Source: Geothrix limicola
GTDB lineage: Bacteria > Acidobacteriota > Holophagae > Holophagales > Holophagaceae
Reading direction: 5' to 3'
DNA length: 64,000 bases
NCBI RefSeq assembly: GCF_030268085.1
Contig: NZ_BSDE01000001.1
Coordinates: 682,001-746,000, forward strand
Position 1 is the stretch's first letter, and every line of letters begins with the position of its first letter. A program made the position numbers and the translations under genes. The notes below the pieces were generated by a model. It made no database searches. It saw only the letters and a list, made by a program, of their open reading frames with translations, and had not been told where the DNA came from. Below are positions 7,800 through 13,818 of the stretch, piece by piece.

Positions 7800-8549
7800 C
7801 TAGATGCCTTCTCCCCGGGACAGCAGGCCCAGCAGGCCCTTCAGCTTGGGCACCGAGGCTCGGCTGACGGGCAGCACCCGGCCCCCGGTGACCGTGATGT
7901 CCCCGCGGCCGCCCATCAGCGGTTTGAAGCCGAGGATGGCCTGGGGCCGAACCAGGAGGTGACGGTGGACCTTCACCAGGCCCTCGTCGGGGAAGGCCTG
8001 CTCGATCTCCAGCAGGGTGGTCCAGGAGGTCTTGAAGCGCTCGCCGGACCAGGCGTAGACCACTTCATCTTCCACTTCGAAATGGCTGACTTTACGGAGA
8101 TCTAGGAAAACAAAGCCTTCACCTGCGCGCACGGGGAAGCGGGGCGACGGGGCGGGAATCAGGGCCGCCAGTTCGGCCCCCTTCCGGCGGGGGATCTGCT
8201 GGTGGTGGAGGCGTTCCAGGGTCTTCAGGAGACGATCCTCGGTGACGGGTTTCAGCAGGTAGTCCACGGCCGCGGCCTCGAAGGCCTGCACGGCGTACTG
8301 CACATGGGCCGTCACGAAGACGACGGGGGGCGGATCCTGCAGTTCCGCGAGGACCTCCAGCCCGCTGAGCCCCGGCATCTGGATGTCGAGGAACAGCGCA
8401 TCGCCCTCCCTGTTCTGCCCGAACCATTCCAGGGTGGCGGCGCTCCCGGTCAGTTCGGCCACCACCTCGCAGCCCGCCTCCCGCAGCAGTCGGGCGAGGC
8501 GCTTGCGGGCCAGGGGTTCATCATCGGCCAGCACCACGCGAAGGGTCAT
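7800..8549 (-). CDS. LytTR-family response regulator
   Basis: DNA-binding response regulator, 249 aa. N-terminal receiver with acidic pocket ADDE (8-11), phospho-acceptor Asp55 in LFLDIQMPG, the conserved Thr in FVTAH and Lys in LLKPV. After a linker comes a LytTR domain (about 140-245; FEVEDEVVYAW, VHRHLLVRPQAI, LPVSRASV), which binds direct repeats upstream of target genes. It is the third gene of an operon: its ATG overlaps the stop of the sensor kinase gene by four bases (ATGA). The cognate kinase is therefore the upstream LytS-type protein. Target genes are unknown. Faces the CCA-adding gene tail to tail with only about 20 bases between, where a weak GC hairpin (GCGGGG/CCCCGC) lies. Confidence 0.95.
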   Translation of the reverse strand: MTLRVVLADDEPLARKRLARLLREAGCEVVAELTGSAATLEWFGQNREGDALFLDIQMPGLSGLEVLAELQDPPPVVFVTAHVQYAVQAFEAAAVDYLLKPVTEDRLLKTLERLHHQQIPRRKGAELAALIPAPSPRFPVRAGEGFVFLDLRKVSHFEVEDEVVYAWSGERFKTSWTTLLEIEQAFPDEGLVKVHRHLLVRPQAILGFKPLMGGRGDITVTGGRVLPVSRASVPKLKGLLGLLSRGEGI

Positions 8550-9652
8550 GGCTTTTCCTCCAGGGGCAAGGTCAGGATGGCGCGGGTCCAGGGAGATTCG
8601 CGCACTAGGTCGAAGCTGGCCCGCGTGCCATAGGCCAATTCCAGGCGGGACTTGAGGTTCCGAAGACCGATGCCCGTGCCCTTCGATTTGGAAGGGCTGG
8701 GATGCTGACCCGTATTGGACACCGTGAGTACGAGACTGGCTCCCTCCCGTCGTCCGCTCACGCGGATGAGACCGCCCTGGGGATCTGCGGCCACGCCATG
8801 CTTGATGGCGTTCTCCACCAGGGGCTGCAGAAGCAGGGGCATCGCGGGCAGCGCGTCGAGCGCGGGGTCCCAGTCCCATTCCACGCGCAGCGCCTCGCCC
8901 AGCCTCAGCTTTTCCACGTCGAGGTAGCGCGACAGCAGCTTCCGTTCTTCGCCCAATGGGATGCTGGGCGTCTCTCCCAGGGCCAAGAGCTGGCGGTAGA
9001 TCTCCGCCAGGTCGCGCATGCCCTTGACCGCCGCCTCGGTGTCTTCCCGCACAAGTTCCGCCAGTCCGTTCAGGCTGTTCAGCAGCACGTGGGGCGACAT
9101 CTGCGCCTTGAGCAGGTTCCAGCGGGCCTCCTCGGAATGGCGCAGGGCTTCGGCTTTTTCCGCGTTCTTGGCCTCCCAGAAGGCGAGGGCGAAGCTGATC
9201 ACCACGGTGAATCCGAACCCCATCAGCAGGCCGAGCAGCATGATGGGATAGAGGTGGGGCCCCTTGGACTGGGCGGATGCGGTGGCGAATTCCAGGTATC
9301 TCCGCACGTTGGGCCAGCCGATGCTGAGGCTCGCGAGGGCGTGCATGGCGTGCAGCGCACAGGCCTGGAGGATGCCGCGCGCGGGCCGCGCCATCCGGCG
9401 GGCATCTCCGGTCCACTGCCAGCCGAAGGGGCTGATGATGAACAGGAACACGCAGCCGAGCAGCGTCGTGCTGACCATCCTGGCATTCAGGATGATGGGG
9501 GGCGTGGCGATCGAGTGGGGGCTCAGGCGCTGCACCACCAGGCTGAGCGCGAGCATGCCGAAGTTGAAGAGGCTCATGCCGCCGATGAGCCCGAGGATCA
9601 GGGGACGTCGGCTTCGGCGGGAAAGGGCCTGGAGGGCATCACGAAGGATCAT
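8546..9652 (-). CDS. LytS-type sensor histidine kinase
   Basis: Membrane histidine kinase of the His_kinase/HATPase (LytS/YehU) class, 368 aa. Four or so membrane segments in the first 160 residues include the block SPFGWQWTGD (74-83). The phosphoacceptor region is AQMSPHVLLNSLN, with His188. The ATP lid has the N-box LLQPLVENAIKHG (Asn281) and the glycine box KGTGIGLRNLKSRL (about 324-337), all intact. The ATG overlaps the stop of the upstream gene by four bases and its own stop overlaps the response-regulator start, so three genes are translationally coupled. It aligns along its whole length with the upstream gene product, indicating tandem duplication. Signal sensed unknown. Confidence 0.93.
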   Translation of the reverse strand: MILRDALQALSRRSRRPLILGLIGGMSLFNFGMLALSLVVQRLSPHSIATPPIILNARMVSTTLLGCVFLFIISPFGWQWTGDARRMARPARGILQACALHAMHALASLSIGWPNVRRYLEFATASAQSKGPHLYPIMLLGLLMGFGFTVVISFALAFWEAKNAEKAEALRHSEEARWNLLKAQMSPHVLLNSLNGLAELVREDTEAAVKGMRDLAEIYRQLLALGETPSIPLGEERKLLSRYLDVEKLRLGEALRVEWDWDPALDALPAMPLLLQPLVENAIKHGVAADPQGGLIRVSGRREGASLVLTVSNTGQHPSPSKSKGTGIGLRNLKSRLELAYGTRASFDLVRESPWTRAILTLPLEEKP

Positions 9653-10689
9653 GGTTCGGCTTCCCCTTCCGGGATCGGGATGCGCAGGGAGGCTTCCCAG
9701 CCGCCGGGACAGGGCGTGGACACGACGTCCGCATCGCGTCCGAGGTCGGATTGGAGGCGTTGTCGAAGGTGCTGAAGCAGGCGTTCTTCCGGGGGCGGAG
9801 CGGCGCCCCGGACGTTGACCTGAACTTCCAGGAGGCGCGGTCGTAGGCGCCTTTCGTTCAGATCCACTTCCAGGGTCGCCGAGGGGTCGGGTTCCAGGAT
9901 CGCTTCAAGGAGGGGCTGAAGGAAGAGGGGCGGGACCTGGACGTGGCCCAGTTCCGGAGCCAGGTGCCAGCGGAGCACCAGGTGGTCGCCCCAGCGGCCG
10001 CGCTCCAAGGCCAGGTACTGCTCGGTGAGGTCCCGGTCGGTGCTCAGGGAGACCAGCGGCAATTCCGCCTCCACGAGCCAGCGGCGGTAGAGGGAGGCCA
10101 GGTCCACGAGTCCCTGTTCCGCCGAGCGGGTGTTGCGGCCCGCAAGCGCCGCGAGGTGGTTCAGGTTGCTGAAGAGGAGGCGGGGGCTGAAGGCGCCGCG
10201 GTGGCTCATCCACTGGGTTTCCCGGGCCCTGGCCTGGGCCTCCCGGGTTTCCTGGGCCAATCGCTCGGCCTTGGCGGCGATCCAGCCCGCGGGGCCCATG
10301 AGAAGCAGGAAGGGCAGGGCCATGCCGATCATTTCACCCAGGCGGAAGGCGGTCTTGGGATCCGTGTCCGGGGCCCCGGCCAGACGGAGGGCGCCCGCGC
10401 TGAGCAGGCCCATGAGGAGGCCGAAGACCAGGAGCTGAAGCAACCCCCTCCACCACGGGGCCAGCGACCGGTCGTCGCCTGTCCATTGCCAGGGTGCGGG
10501 TGAAACGAAGAGGCCGAGGTTCAGGACCGGAATGATCAGGGCCAGACCCAGGAAGCGCCGGTAGGAAGGACCTCCCGACCCCAGAATCACGAAGAGGCTG
10601 GGGAAGACGGCCAGGGCGAGGCCCACCGCCCACCACCCGGGATGGCAGAGGCGGGCCTTCAGGGAGGATCGGATGGCGGGCAGGCGCAT
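9649..10689 (-). CDS. Degenerate LytS-type histidine kinase paralogue (pseudokinase)
   Basis: First gene of the LytS/LytTR operon, 346 aa from the ATG at 10689. The same architecture as its neighbour is visible: membrane N-terminus with SPAPWQWTGD (63-72 against SPFGWQWTGD), a linker helix, then a kinase-like region. Key residues are gone: the phosphoacceptor block reads FSPRLLFSNLN with Arg170 where the partner has His188; the N-box reads LLQPLLEAILEP with Ala at the Asn position; the GxGxGL box is absent (PPPEERLLQHLRQRLQ). It should therefore neither bind ATP normally nor autophosphorylate, but may dimerise with the active kinase as a sensor or modulator. The reading frame is intact. The ATG start is favoured because it aligns with the paralogue N-terminus; a TTG at 10749 is possible. 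Confidence 0.85.
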   Translation of the reverse strand: MRLPAIRSSLKARLCHPGWWAVGLALAVFPSLFVILGSGGPSYRRFLGLALIIPVLNLGLFVSPAPWQWTGDDRSLAPWWRGLLQLLVFGLLMGLLSAGALRLAGAPDTDPKTAFRLGEMIGMALPFLLLMGPAGWIAAKAERLAQETREAQARARETQWMSHRGAFSPRLLFSNLNHLAALAGRNTRSAEQGLVDLASLYRRWLVEAELPLVSLSTDRDLTEQYLALERGRWGDHLVLRWHLAPELGHVQVPPLFLQPLLEAILEPDPSATLEVDLNERRLRPRLLEVQVNVRGAAPPPEERLLQHLRQRLQSDLGRDADVVSTPCPGGWEASLRIPIPEGEAEP

Positions 10690-10892
10690 GGGCGGTGGGA
10701 TCTTGGCAGTCAGAAGGCTTGGTGTCGGGAGCAACAGGTCGAACCACAATGTCCTGAAGCGACGTGATCGGCTCCGACCTGATCATGGTTCGGTTCAGGG
10801 AAGGATGGTGGCTCCATGGTGGCATTTCCCGGCGAATGGCCGCCTAGGTCCGTTGAATGGCGGGACAAGGCCTGACGGATGGGGCGGCCAAA
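10690..10892. other. Intergenic region upstream of the LytS/LytTR operon
   Basis: About 200 bases holding the presumed operon promoter on the minus strand. No convincing -35/-10 pair, LytTR direct repeat or small gene was recognised. Confidence 0.4.
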
Positions 10893-10929
10893 CAAGAAGA
10901 ACGCCTGGCTAGGCCAGGCGTTCTTCTTG
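10893..10929 (-). terminator. Terminator of the first Oar-like receptor gene
   Basis: Perfect 16-bp stem CAAGAAGAACGCCTGG / CCAGGCGTTCTTCTTG with a five-base loop, 21 bases beyond the receptor stop codon. On the minus strand the U-containing TTCTTCTTGTTT side follows the GC core, as in an intrinsic terminator. Confidence 0.8.
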
Positions 10930-10950
10930 TGAAGCTGGGGTTCCGGTTGA

Positions 10951-13818
10951 TCAGAACTTGAAACCAGCCTGGGCGAGGACGCTCCGGGCTTCTCCAAAGT
11001 TGCTGGACCCGTGGGGCAGGCCGTTGCCTGAAACGGGGACCCAGCTCGCGGGATCATACAGGTTGCCGCCATTGGGGGATTCCCACTGGTTGCGCCAGGA
11101 ACGCAGCTGCTGATGGTTGAAGACATTCAGCACCGTGATTTTCGCGAAGAAGGCCACCGATTTTTCCGCGACCTTGAACAACGCGAAATCCTGGGTGACG
11201 GCGAAATCCGTGAAGGCCTGGGCCGGGTAGACGATGTTGCCCCGGGCATCGTTGCGGTACTGGGTCAGGCTGCTGATCTGCGTGAGGTTCGCATTGACGT
11301 CCGTGGCGGTTACGGTGCGGGTCTCGCTGTCATGCGCACCGGAATCGAAGCGGTAGATCAGGCCAAGGGTGGTCTTGCCCCAGGACCAGTCGAAGTGGTA
11401 GTCAGCGGTGGCGCGGATGCGGAGGGGGATGTGCCCCTGCAAGGGGCCGCTCGGCGAGAAGTGGCTGATGTCGTAGGTCGGAGTCCCATTGATGGAAGTG
11501 AAGTAGGCGAGACCCTGGCCGGAGGGGCCGACACCACTGCTTTCGCCCTGGTAGTTGCCTTTGAGCGAGGACCAGACCACGTTGCCCGACACGTCCCAGC
11601 TGGTCATGTGGATTCCGGATTCCAGTTCCAGATCCTTGTAGGTCCGCTTGGCCTGGTTGCTGTTCTCCCAGACCTTCACAAAGATGTCCCCGAGCCCGAG
11701 AGCAGGCGGGGGCGTGAAGGTTCCGTCGTTGCCGGAGCGGTAGTCGAAGAGATCCTTGTAATCCCGGCGGACAATGGTGGCCTTGGCATAAGCGTCGTGG
11801 CCCATCACCTTGTAGCCATGGGTCAGGCTCACCTGGTACTCGTTGGTGTGGGGCGCCTTCAGATTGGCCGCGAGCCTGGTCGTCTGCGGGCTGGCGTAGT
11901 TGTACGGCTGGGTCCAGTTGGCCGGATTGGTGACATCGGAAGGCTTCGCCGTGGCGCCAGGCGTCGCGCCGTTCAGAGGCCCGGTGTAGGCGTAGTCGAT
12001 CTCCGTCGGATTGCCCGCATTGCTCACAGAGTTGACGATGGCCGAGAGAGGCTTCGCATTGTAGCGGCTGAAACTGGCTGTGACCTGCCAGGAGGCATCA
12101 CCAAAGATGTCCCATTTGCCACCCATGCGCGGCGACCACCCAGAGGCGCCAGCGCTCGCCGAGGTGTCTTCGCTATAGGCGTGATAGCGGTCCCAGCGGA
12201 GGCCCAGGTTCAGAGACAGCCGGTCGTTGATGGACCACTTGTCGTTGATGTAGAAGCCAAGGCTGTTGTCATAGGCGGTAGCGGTGGATGACTGGTAGGT
12301 CTGGTAGACGTAGGGGACACCACCATCCGGCGTGCCTCCGAGGGTTCCGTTCGGATCCCATCCGGCCACGTTGAAGATGTTGTTGGTCGGAGACTGCTGG
12401 TTCTGGGCCCGGTGGCTGCCCTTCAGGTAATTGCCGCCGAATACCACCTGGTGGGAGCCGGCTCCCTCGAACAGCATCGTGAACTTAATGTCCGCGCTCT
12501 GGTTGTCCCGATGGTCACCGCCGTCGTAGTTGTTGAAGAATCCGTTCAGGTATCCGAGGCCGGAGTTGTAGTCATACACAGGCGTGACGCCGGGAATGGT
12601 GCCACCGCCGGTGAGGGCCTCCTTCTTCTCGCCGATGCGGGCCTCCATGGAGAGGTTCGATGCCCAGTTGGCGGACCAGTTCAGGCTCCAGGAACTGTCC
12701 TGGGAGAGCTGGGGTTCCAGCGCGGCGAGTTCACCTGCGAGAAAGTCGTTGTTGTTGACCATCTCCCGGTGGGTGACGTAGGCGAAAGACAGCGTGTGGT
12801 CCTGGTTGACCAGATAGGTGAACTTGGCCTGAAGCCGCTTGTCGTCATCCCCCTGGGCGTAGCCCTTGCCTGCGTCCACCGAAGAACCTGCATCAATGGT
12901 CTGGAAGGTCGACGTATTGCGCTGCTGGCCGGAGAGGAAGAACCAGAGCTTGTCCTTGATGAGGTAGCCGCCGACGCTGAGGCTGTCCGTGTGGTTCAGC
13001 TTGTTCGGTATGAGGGCCCGGCTGGCCGAAGTGGTGAAGGGCTTCACCGCATTCCAGGAGGCATTGCTCATCTGGGAGCGGAAGACGCCCGAGAATTCAT
13101 TGCCGCCGGTCTTGGTGACCGCGTTGATCACGCCGCCATCCACGTCGCCATACTCCGCGGAAATGGCGCCGGTGATGATCTGGATTTCATCGATGGCATC
13201 GTCGATGACGGAGATGCCACGGTTGCCGTACAGGCTGTCGGAGACTTCCTGGCCGTCCAGCATGAACCGGTTGTTGGAGCTCATGGCCCCGCGCACCTGG
13301 GCATAGCCATTCACGGTGTTGGAATCGACGACGCCTGGTGCCAGGGCCATCATGTTCTCGACGCTGCGACCAGTCGGCAGGTTGTTGACTTCCTCCATGC
13401 GGAAATTGGAGCTCGTGCTGGTCTCCTGCTTATCGACCTGGGCCAGGGTGCCAACGACGCTGACAATGGCGTTGCCCACGGGCTGCAGGGCGAAACGGGG
13501 GCTGTACCGCTGTCCCAGTTCCAAACGCTGGTTGGCCGTCAAGGTCTGGTGGCCAGCCTCCGAAATCTGGAAGGTGTAGGCGCCCGGGGGCAGCAAGCGG
13601 GCGGAGAACCGTCCGGTTGCGTCGGTCATATAGGTGCGCTGGCCCTGAAGTGAGGGGCTGGTGAGGACCACACGGGCGCCGGTGACAGGCTGGCCTTTGT
13701 CATCCACCACCAGGCCGGAAACATCCGAAGTCTGTACACCCTGCGCGAGGAGCGGGAGGGCGGCGCCCATCACGATGAGGACGGAGACGCGACTGAGCGC
13801 GCCAAAGGTTGTACGCAT
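10951..13818 (-). CDS. Oar-like TonB-dependent outer-membrane receptor
   Basis: Large outer-membrane protein, 955 aa. A signal peptide (about 1-26, cut near LLAQG) leads into a carboxypeptidase-regulatory-like beta-sandwich (VSGLVVDDKGQPVTGARV to SEAGHQT, about 30-105), then a plug domain (EVNNLPTGRSVENMMALAPG, RGAMSSNNRFMLDGQEVSD, EYGDVDGGVINAVTKTGGNEF) and a 22-strand-type barrel ending in a C-terminal aromatic (AGFKF). This is the Oar/CarboxypepD_reg receptor family expanded in Acidobacteriota; ligands are thought to be oligomers or peptides but are mostly unknown. Start at 13818 has GGAGG nine bases upstream. No TonB/ExbBD genes are close. Monocistronic, with its own terminator. Confidence 0.93.
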   Translation of the reverse strand: MRTTFGALSRVSVLIVMGAALPLLAQGVQTSDVSGLVVDDKGQPVTGARVVLTSPSLQGQRTYMTDATGRFSARLLPPGAYTFQISEAGHQTLTANQRLELGQRYSPRFALQPVGNAIVSVVGTLAQVDKQETSTSSNFRMEEVNNLPTGRSVENMMALAPGVVDSNTVNGYAQVRGAMSSNNRFMLDGQEVSDSLYGNRGISVIDDAIDEIQIITGAISAEYGDVDGGVINAVTKTGGNEFSGVFRSQMSNASWNAVKPFTTSASRALIPNKLNHTDSLSVGGYLIKDKLWFFLSGQQRNTSTFQTIDAGSSVDAGKGYAQGDDDKRLQAKFTYLVNQDHTLSFAYVTHREMVNNNDFLAGELAALEPQLSQDSSWSLNWSANWASNLSMEARIGEKKEALTGGGTIPGVTPVYDYNSGLGYLNGFFNNYDGGDHRDNQSADIKFTMLFEGAGSHQVVFGGNYLKGSHRAQNQQSPTNNIFNVAGWDPNGTLGGTPDGGVPYVYQTYQSSTATAYDNSLGFYINDKWSINDRLSLNLGLRWDRYHAYSEDTSASAGASGWSPRMGGKWDIFGDASWQVTASFSRYNAKPLSAIVNSVSNAGNPTEIDYAYTGPLNGATPGATAKPSDVTNPANWTQPYNYASPQTTRLAANLKAPHTNEYQVSLTHGYKVMGHDAYAKATIVRRDYKDLFDYRSGNDGTFTPPPALGLGDIFVKVWENSNQAKRTYKDLELESGIHMTSWDVSGNVVWSSLKGNYQGESSGVGPSGQGLAYFTSINGTPTYDISHFSPSGPLQGHIPLRIRATADYHFDWSWGKTTLGLIYRFDSGAHDSETRTVTATDVNANLTQISSLTQYRNDARGNIVYPAQAFTDFAVTQDFALFKVAEKSVAFFAKITVLNVFNHQQLRSWRNQWESPNGGNLYDPASWVPVSGNGLPHGSSNFGEARSVLAQAGFKF

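What the first reader, a model, noticed from the sequence alone, without database searches (positions are those of the whole stretch)
7800..10689. LytS/LytTR operon led by a tandem pseudokinase
Three genes overlap by four bases each (ATGA). The first two products align along their length (SPAPWQWTGD against SPFGWQWTGD in the membrane domain). The second keeps His188, N-box Asn281 and the GTGIGL box; the first has Arg170 in place of His, Ala for the N-box Asn and no glycine box, yet an intact frame. Established: LytS-type kinases act as dimers. Inference: an obligate heterodimer or a sensor-only subunit that tunes the active kinase, a three-component LytTR system.
Basis: partly seen in the sequence, partly recalled or inferred. 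Interest (0 to 1): 0.65.

Follow-up and report, generated by a model that had tools for sequence, protein, structure and literature searches.

The report
Dead sensor kinase paired with live one
A bacterium carries an operon in which a sensor kinase that has lost its catalytic parts is kept by selection next to a working kinase and its gene switch, which points to a two-headed sensor with only one working half; related arrangements are known in other bacteria, so this is an uncommon variant rather than a new kind.

Summary
Window 7800-10689 (minus strand) holds three genes joined by ATGA overlaps: a degenerate PF06580-type kinase (PK), an intact paralogue (HK) and a LytTR regulator. PK is not a dying duplicate. 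Six of 77 genomes of the family, in three genera, carry it with an open frame directly before an HK; the five full-length partner HKs form one clade. All six PKs lack the N-box Asn, an intact GxGxGL box and the Asn four residues after the acceptor. The acceptor drifts (Arg 4, His 1, Asp 1). Of 119 aligned kinases, 111 keep both His and N-box Asn. Against its same-genus relatives the window's PK is most conserved in linker and dimerisation helices (78-81% identity, dN/dS about 0.2) and least in the ATP-domain remnant (46-50%). A second intact/degenerate pair arose separately in another genus. A 21-bp-period repeat 115-139 bp upstream of PK in the three same-genus genomes suggests autoregulation. 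Most likely PK is a non-catalytic membrane sensor subunit that heterodimerises with HK; dimerisation, ligand and sign of control are untested. FasBCA of Streptococcus pyogenes is the closest functional precedent, but its pseudokinase keeps the acceptor His. New variant of a known kind.

The parts
9649..10689 (-). PK: degenerate PF06580-type histidine kinase (pseudokinase), 346 aa, four TM spans read from the model + DHp + CA remnant with shortened lid
   Evidence: conserved start MR[LF]PA in three genomes
10180..10182 (-). codon 170 of PK, CGC Arg, at the phosphoacceptor His position
8546..9652 (-). HK: intact PF06580/HATPase_c histidine kinase, 368 aa
9089..9091 (-). codon 188 of HK, acceptor His
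8810..8812 (-). codon 281 of HK, N-box Asn
8663..8680 (-). GTGIGL glycine box of HK (residues 325-330; coordinates derived from the codon numbering)
7800..8549 (-). RR: receiver (Asp55) + LytTR DNA-binding response regulator, 249 aa
9649..9652 (-). ATGA overlap PK/HK
8546..8549 (-). ATGA overlap HK/RR
10829..10860 (-). candidate LytTR operator: CCATTCAACGG-N10-CCATTCGCCGG, direct repeat of 21-bp period, 139 bp upstream of the PK start
   Evidence: sites of the same kind 126 bp (G020) and 115 bp (G029, one mismatch) upstream of the orthologous PK
10892..10930 (.). 18-bp perfect inverted repeat (3-nt loop) between the upstream TonB receptor gene and the operon; terminator-like, suggesting separate transcription
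   Evidence: the consensus terminator scan did not call it

Best explanation
PK is a conserved, non-catalytic membrane sensor subunit. It pairs with HK through their related DHp helices and lets its own membrane domain gate the one working kinase. HK supplies the only ATP-binding domain and, in this genus, the only acceptor His; HK-P phosphorylates the LytTR regulator, which probably binds the direct repeat upstream of PK and controls the operon itself. Because the acceptor position in PK drifts (R, H, D) while the DHp stays conserved, PK's own acceptor is probably not used: control is allosteric, and a working heterodimer would need HK to phosphorylate its own His in cis. Shown here: conservation, selection, loss of motifs, co-inheritance, predicted fold, upstream repeat. 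Inferred: heterodimer, ligand sensing, cis route, autoregulation. The sign (activator or brake) is open.
For: Orthologues in 6 of 77 genomes of the family, three genera, all with open frames. PK clade support 1.0 and clade of the five full-length partner HKs 0.997, with the same branching where both are full length. In a search of the 77 genomes with HK, the hits clearly above the paralogues (73, 72, 56%) lie in PK-bearing genomes. Window against same-genus relatives: PK linker+DHp 78-81% identical (dN/dS 0.17-0.22), CA remnant 46-50%, TM 54%. N-box Asn and H+4 Asn lost in 6 of 6 PK and kept in 111 of 111 non-degenerate kinases; lid 9-10 versus 11-18 residues. AlphaFold2: pLDDT 90.5, DHp helices kept, N-box helix and lid shortened relative to HK; best solved matches are histidine-kinase cores. 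Upstream 21-bp-period repeat in 3 of 3 same-genus orthologues, G029 being the one not used to draw the pattern. Second, separately derived intact/degenerate pair in G089 and G090.
Against: No dimerisation or phosphorylation datum exists. PK is patchy: 3 of 47 genomes of the genus. The Gly of the NxG motif is kept in all six PKs, the N-box Glu in five, and His four after the N-box Asn in two, so the ATP pocket is not erased in every column. G084 keeps the acceptor His, so a FasC-like use of it there is not excluded. PK evolves faster than HK (60% versus 73% identity, window-G029). G094's HK (43%) is no closer to the window's HK than paralogues are. The repeat belongs to a site family found at other loci, so the regulator bound could be a paralogue; at up to one mismatch G083 has no site at all, and G084 and G094 have none on PK's contig.
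Confidence: 0.62

Rival explanations
1. Dominant-negative brake: HK autophosphorylates in trans, so HK:PK heterodimers are dead and PK titrates HK; ligand binding to PK releases HK to form active homodimers (as in RetS, which among other things inhibits GacS autophosphorylation).
For: In this genus PK has neither acceptor nor ATP site, so a trans heterodimer would be inactive; PK precedes HK in overlapping genes, so both are probably made together.
Against: Under trans chemistry, G084's His would behave differently from Arg or Asp within one conserved clade; whether this family works in cis or trans was not tested.
Confidence: 0.2
2. FasBC-like split kinase: PK supplies the acceptor and sensor, HK supplies the ATP domain.
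For: G084's PK keeps His with a dead ATP site, as proposed for FasC (PMC12675982, passages).
Against: The acceptor is Arg or Asp in 5 of 6 PKs including the window, and H-4 Gln and H+4 Asn are lost in all six.
Confidence: 0.06
3. PK docks or sequesters the response regulator, or senses its phosphorylated form, like DivL with DivK-P.
For: Conserved DHp stretch around the dead acceptor, WMSHRGAFSPRLLF, identical in the three same-genus genomes.
Against: No test of RR binding; the conserved stretch would serve dimerisation as well; the H+4 Asn, by recalled analogy with other kinases a candidate phosphatase residue, is lost in all six.
Confidence: 0.08
4. Decaying tandem duplicate without function.
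For: Faster evolution than HK and patchy presence.
Against: Six open frames across three genera, dN/dS 0.23-0.43 overall and 0.10-0.22 in linker+DHp between the three same-genus genomes, and joint inheritance with HK.
Confidence: 0.04

Closest known systems
FasBCA of Streptococcus pyogenes (PMC12675982: abstract, outline and passages seen; PMC8234341: passages)
   Same: Two kinase-like membrane proteins and one response regulator in one operon; one kinase proposed to be a pseudokinase; reported as a three-component system with a heterodimer.
   Different: FasC keeps its acceptor His246, which is required; [quoted passage not shown] in the window PK has lost both the acceptor and the ATP site and comes first; here the kinases are PF06580 type. 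That FasA's ComE-like family is a LytTR family is recalled.
LytS/LytTR-type systems such as BtsS/BtsR (PMC10653868, passages)
   Same: Kinase plus LytTR regulator; BtsS dimerises in a two-hybrid assay.
   Different: The 5TMR-LYT domain called characteristic of LytS-type kinases was not found here; a second, dead kinase is added.
DivL pseudo-histidine kinase of Caulobacter (PMC4211667, passages)
   Same: Histidine-kinase fold with the acceptor replaced, working as a regulator or sensor.
   Different: DivL retains the N, G1, F and G2 motifs and senses DivK-P; PK lost the N-box Asn and the GxGxGL box and is a membrane protein beside its likely partner kinase.
RetS/GacS of Pseudomonas aeruginosa (PMC5992135, passages)
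   Same: A kinase with a degenerate HATPase controls another kinase, also by inhibiting its autophosphorylation.
   Different: RetS has REC domains and uses phosphotransfer and phosphatase activity; no receiver domain was found in PK.

Membership tests
PF06580/LytTR two-component system | HK with His_kinase and HATPase_c, RR with receiver and LytTR, above curated cut-offs | tested here: met
LytS-type kinase in the strict sense | 5TMR_LYT membrane domain | tested here: not met
   no such hit for PK or HK at E up to 1; definition from a PMC10653868 passage
Pseudo-histidine kinase (general) | histidine-kinase fold retained with catalytic residues lost, frame under selection | tested here: met
   fold by prediction only, activity not assayed
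DivL-type pseudokinase | only the acceptor replaced, N and G boxes kept | tested here: not met
FasBCA-type three-component system | two kinase-like genes and one regulator in one operon | tested here: met
   (gene overlap; co-transcription not measured)
FasBCA-type three-component system | pseudokinase keeps the acceptor His used for phosphotransfer | tested here: not met
   Arg170 in the window; His only in G084, 1 of 6
FasBCA-type three-component system | the two kinases heterodimerise and do not homodimerise | not testable with these tools
   no complex prediction or binding assay available
FasBCA-type three-component system | six-TM membrane domains | tested here: not met
   AlphaFold2 helices read as four TM spans; no dedicated TM predictor run
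RetS-type | hybrid kinase with REC domains | tested here: not met

The most novel reading that the evidence does not exclude
A receptor half-subunit: a histidine kinase stripped of ATP site, acceptor and the conserved Asn after it, kept only for its membrane sensor and DHp bundle, making the partner kinase an obligate heterodimer. It evolved at least twice in this family, with different catalytic losses first (ATP site in PK; acceptor, with the N-box Asn still present, in G089/G090).
Probability: 0.35. Interest if true: 0.65.

Novelty: new variant of a known kind. Interest (0 to 1): 0.5.

Why it matters
Histidine kinases are normally treated as homodimers. Here nature offers a series, with the same dead ATP site but Arg, His or Asp at the acceptor, plus a separate pair where the acceptor went while the N-box Asn stayed. 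That makes a clean test of what each half of a kinase dimer contributes and whether this family autophosphorylates in cis or trans. It also warns that a PF06580 hit alone would call PK a working kinase.

Tried and rejected
Recent decay of PK: rejected by six open frames, selection and co-inheritance. PK as a phylum-wide family: a sample of 396 genomes of the phylum gave PK only in G000, G020, G029 and G084, but only the five best candidates per genome were scored. A regulon from the upstream repeat: at up to three mismatches the three same-genus genomes give 14, 14 and 17 sites against 5, 1 and 3 for the reversed control pattern, so some are chance. Some sites lie before an ABC transporter gene pair and before a protein of about 470 aa in all three genomes. 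At up to one mismatch the family gives 132 sites in 57 of 77 genomes against 17 for the control, and 52 of those 57 genomes have no PK. In 12 genomes such a site lies 1.5-2.0 kb upstream of the matched stretch of another PF06580 kinase, same strand, counted by hand from the lists, the first of which was cut short. So I do not assign the distant sites to this RR. In the window itself one match at up to three mismatches stands against 0.17 expected, 16 of 100 shuffles having one; the pattern was drawn partly from this site. The TonB-dependent receptor as target: adjacent in the window and in G020, but G029 has another gene there, so not claimed. Sigma-70 and terminator consensus scan of 10600-11000: nothing found. 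Literature: nine searches of the open-access library, judged from their listings, showed no paper on a tandem intact/pseudokinase pair in Acidobacteriota; most subscription papers and bioRxiv preprints are not held. YN00 dN/dS failed on 4 of 9 pairs, so NG86 is quoted; synonymous divergence is high and the DNA GC-rich, so the ratios are rough.

Full report
Observation. The three minus-strand genes exist as described: PK 10689-9649, HK 9652-8546, RR 8549-7800, each junction an ATGA overlap. PK and HK are paralogues (31% over 283 columns, E 8e-28; 34% in the global alignment). HK carries His188, Asn281 and GTGIGL; PK carries Arg170, Ala at the N-box Asn and no GxGxGL box. Pfam finds His_kinase plus HATPase_c in HK, His_kinase without HATPase_c in PK, and receiver plus LytTR in RR. 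RR has Asp55 and Lys100 at the usual receiver positions (that these are the usual positions is recalled).

Not chance within the genome. The window's genome gives 9 PF06580 hits and 8 LytTR hits. Apart from PK, the 8 kinases keep acceptor His and N-box; one of them (L006) deviates at the glycine of the NxG motif.

Orthologues. Among 60 genomes (own included) PK orthologues stand out at 61% and 58% in G029 and G020. Across the family, 77 genomes including the own one, the profile finds PK in 6: 3 of 47 genomes of the window's genus, 2 of 4 of genus g21 (G083, G084) and 1 of 2 of g24 (G094). Each lies directly upstream of an HK: ATGA in G000, G020, G029 and G094, GTGA in G084, and overlapping frames in G083, by 7 bases or 1 depending on the start. 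In G084 the HK is cut by the contig end after 189 residues, so its regulator was not seen. Of the 39 named hits, 31 are titled Holophagaceae or Geothrix, so the family is taken as Holophagaceae and the genus as probably Geothrix (inference).

What is lost and what is kept. I collected loci around kinases chosen mainly by similarity to PK or its profile, plus the own-genome hits: 171 loci, 168 with a kinase hit, 121 distinct kinase frames, 2 truncated frames dropped, 119 aligned. Of these, 111 have His at the acceptor and Asn at the N-box; 8 deviate. The 8 are the six PKs and two others. In the six PKs the acceptor is R, R, R, R, H, D. The N-box Asn is A, S or Q in all six. H+4 Asn, invariant in the 111, is S, G or R in all six, and H-4 Gln (108 of 111) is A or P in all six. 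The ATP-lid span is 9-10 residues against 11-18. Kept in PK: the Pro before the acceptor (6 of 6), the Gly of NxG (6 of 6), the N-box Glu (5 of 6) and the His four after the N-box Asn (2 of 6). So an impaired ATP site is the shared loss; the acceptor is variable; and G084's His sits in an otherwise broken H-box. Five of the 111 also deviate in one glycine-box column and two in the NxG glycine, so those columns are not strict. The sample is biased towards PK-like kinases and is not a census.

Selection. Between the window and its two same-genus relatives, whole-gene dN/dS (NG86) is 0.39 and 0.43 for PK, 0.26 and 0.25 for HK, and 0.14 and 0.12 for RR; between the two relatives it is 0.23, 0.13 and 0.06. 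By region against the window, PK linker+DHp is 78-81% identical (0.17-0.22), TM 54% (0.45-0.52), CA remnant 46-50% (0.44-0.60); HK's CA is 80-81% identical. PK thus kept the dimerisation part and relaxed the catalytic part.

Ancestry. In a FastTree of the 119 kinases the six PKs form one clade (support 1.0) and the five full-length partner HKs another (0.997). Both join G029 with G020, then G000, G083 and finally G094; in the PK clade G084 joins between G083 (node support only 0.41) and G094 (0.85 for the five without G094). A search with HK over the 77 genomes at E up to 1e-60 gives 73, 72 and 56% in G029, G020 and G083. G094's HK is at 43%, no higher than the paralogue hits of 39-47% in other genomes (seen as L002 in the own genome), so its assignment rests on the tree and gene order; G084's truncated HK did not reach the threshold.

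Second pair. G089 and G090 (genus g23) carry, in one run of adjacent genes, an intact kinase, then a degenerate one, then a LytTR-like regulator. There the acceptor is Arg or Gly and H+4 is Glu or Asp, but the N-box Asn is kept. In the tree these four form a group of five with one other kinase (0.954), apart from PK. Among the loci examined, the 8 same-strand adjacent kinase pairs each contain one degenerate member, and the 8 degenerate kinases are all in such pairs; two further loci hold two kinases on opposite strands (many loci have short flanks).

Structure. AlphaFold2 models: PK pLDDT 90.5, pTM 0.71; HK 90.4, 0.72. Both show a helical membrane part that I read as four spans, a long helix into the DHp, and an alpha/beta CA domain. 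The N-box helix is 8 residues in PK (258-265) and 13 in HK (275-287); the span after the second CA strand is 6 residues in PK (296-301) and 14 in HK (314-327). Foldseek's best solved matches for PK are GanS and DesK, followed by phytochromes and other histidine-kinase cores, with modest TM-scores over the whole query (0.36 at best in the list), as the membrane part is unmatched. The PK model was made with an alignment that includes intact kinases (A5, 63 rows), which may pull it to the kinase fold.

Cis element. The window has CCATTCAACGG-N10-CCATTCGCCGG at 10829-10860, and G020 has the same arrangement; the pattern was drawn from these two. The independent case is G029: a one-mismatch site, one of three in that genome at up to one mismatch, lies 115 bp upstream of its PK. 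Sites of this kind occur in 57 of 77 family genomes, 132 against 17 for the reversed control, some before ABC transporter genes and at least 12 within 2 kb upstream of other PF06580 kinases. So it is probably a LytTR operator type, not unique to this RR. A resemblance to E. coli YpdB sites is recalled only. An 18-bp perfect inverted repeat separates the operon from the upstream TonB receptor gene.

Mechanism. A protein whose ATP site is broken, which keeps its DHp and membrane parts and is co-encoded and co-inherited with one intact kinase, most likely works as that kinase's partner subunit. Drift at PK's acceptor argues that it is not used, hence an allosteric role and, if the heterodimer is active, cis autophosphorylation of HK. 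The brake reading remains the main rival. Precedents seen in passages: FasBC heterodimer with FasC as proposed pseudokinase, RetS on GacS, DivL. None of these has the same set of losses in a PF06580/LytTR operon; this is a new variant, not a new kind.

Noticed in passing
window 10951-13818 (-): Large TonB-dependent receptor with an N-terminal carboxypeptidase-regulatory-like domain and plug ('Oar-like' is recalled), directly upstream of PK; shared with G020 (82%) but with another gene there in G029. Similar-looking receptors, judged by eye, lie near the second pair in G089 and G090.
   Followed up: partly
L113 3770-5928 (-), L114 3205-5411 (+): Separately derived tandem pair in G089/G090: intact kinase first, degenerate kinase second (acceptor Arg or Gly, N-box Asn kept), then a LytTR-like regulator.
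   Followed up: partly
L212, L234, L211 and L221, L219, L220: Conserved CCGTTCGCCGG-N10-CC[AG]TTC..CGA direct repeats upstream of an ABC transporter gene pair (NatAB-like, recalled) and of an unknown protein of about 470 aa in all three PK-bearing genomes of the genus.
   Followed up: partly
   Followed up: no
window 7800-9416 (-): The RR frame stays open far upstream into HK, giving a 538-codon ORF; probably a high-GC artefact, as the ATG at 8549 with its ATGA overlap is conserved in G020 and G029.
   Followed up: partly
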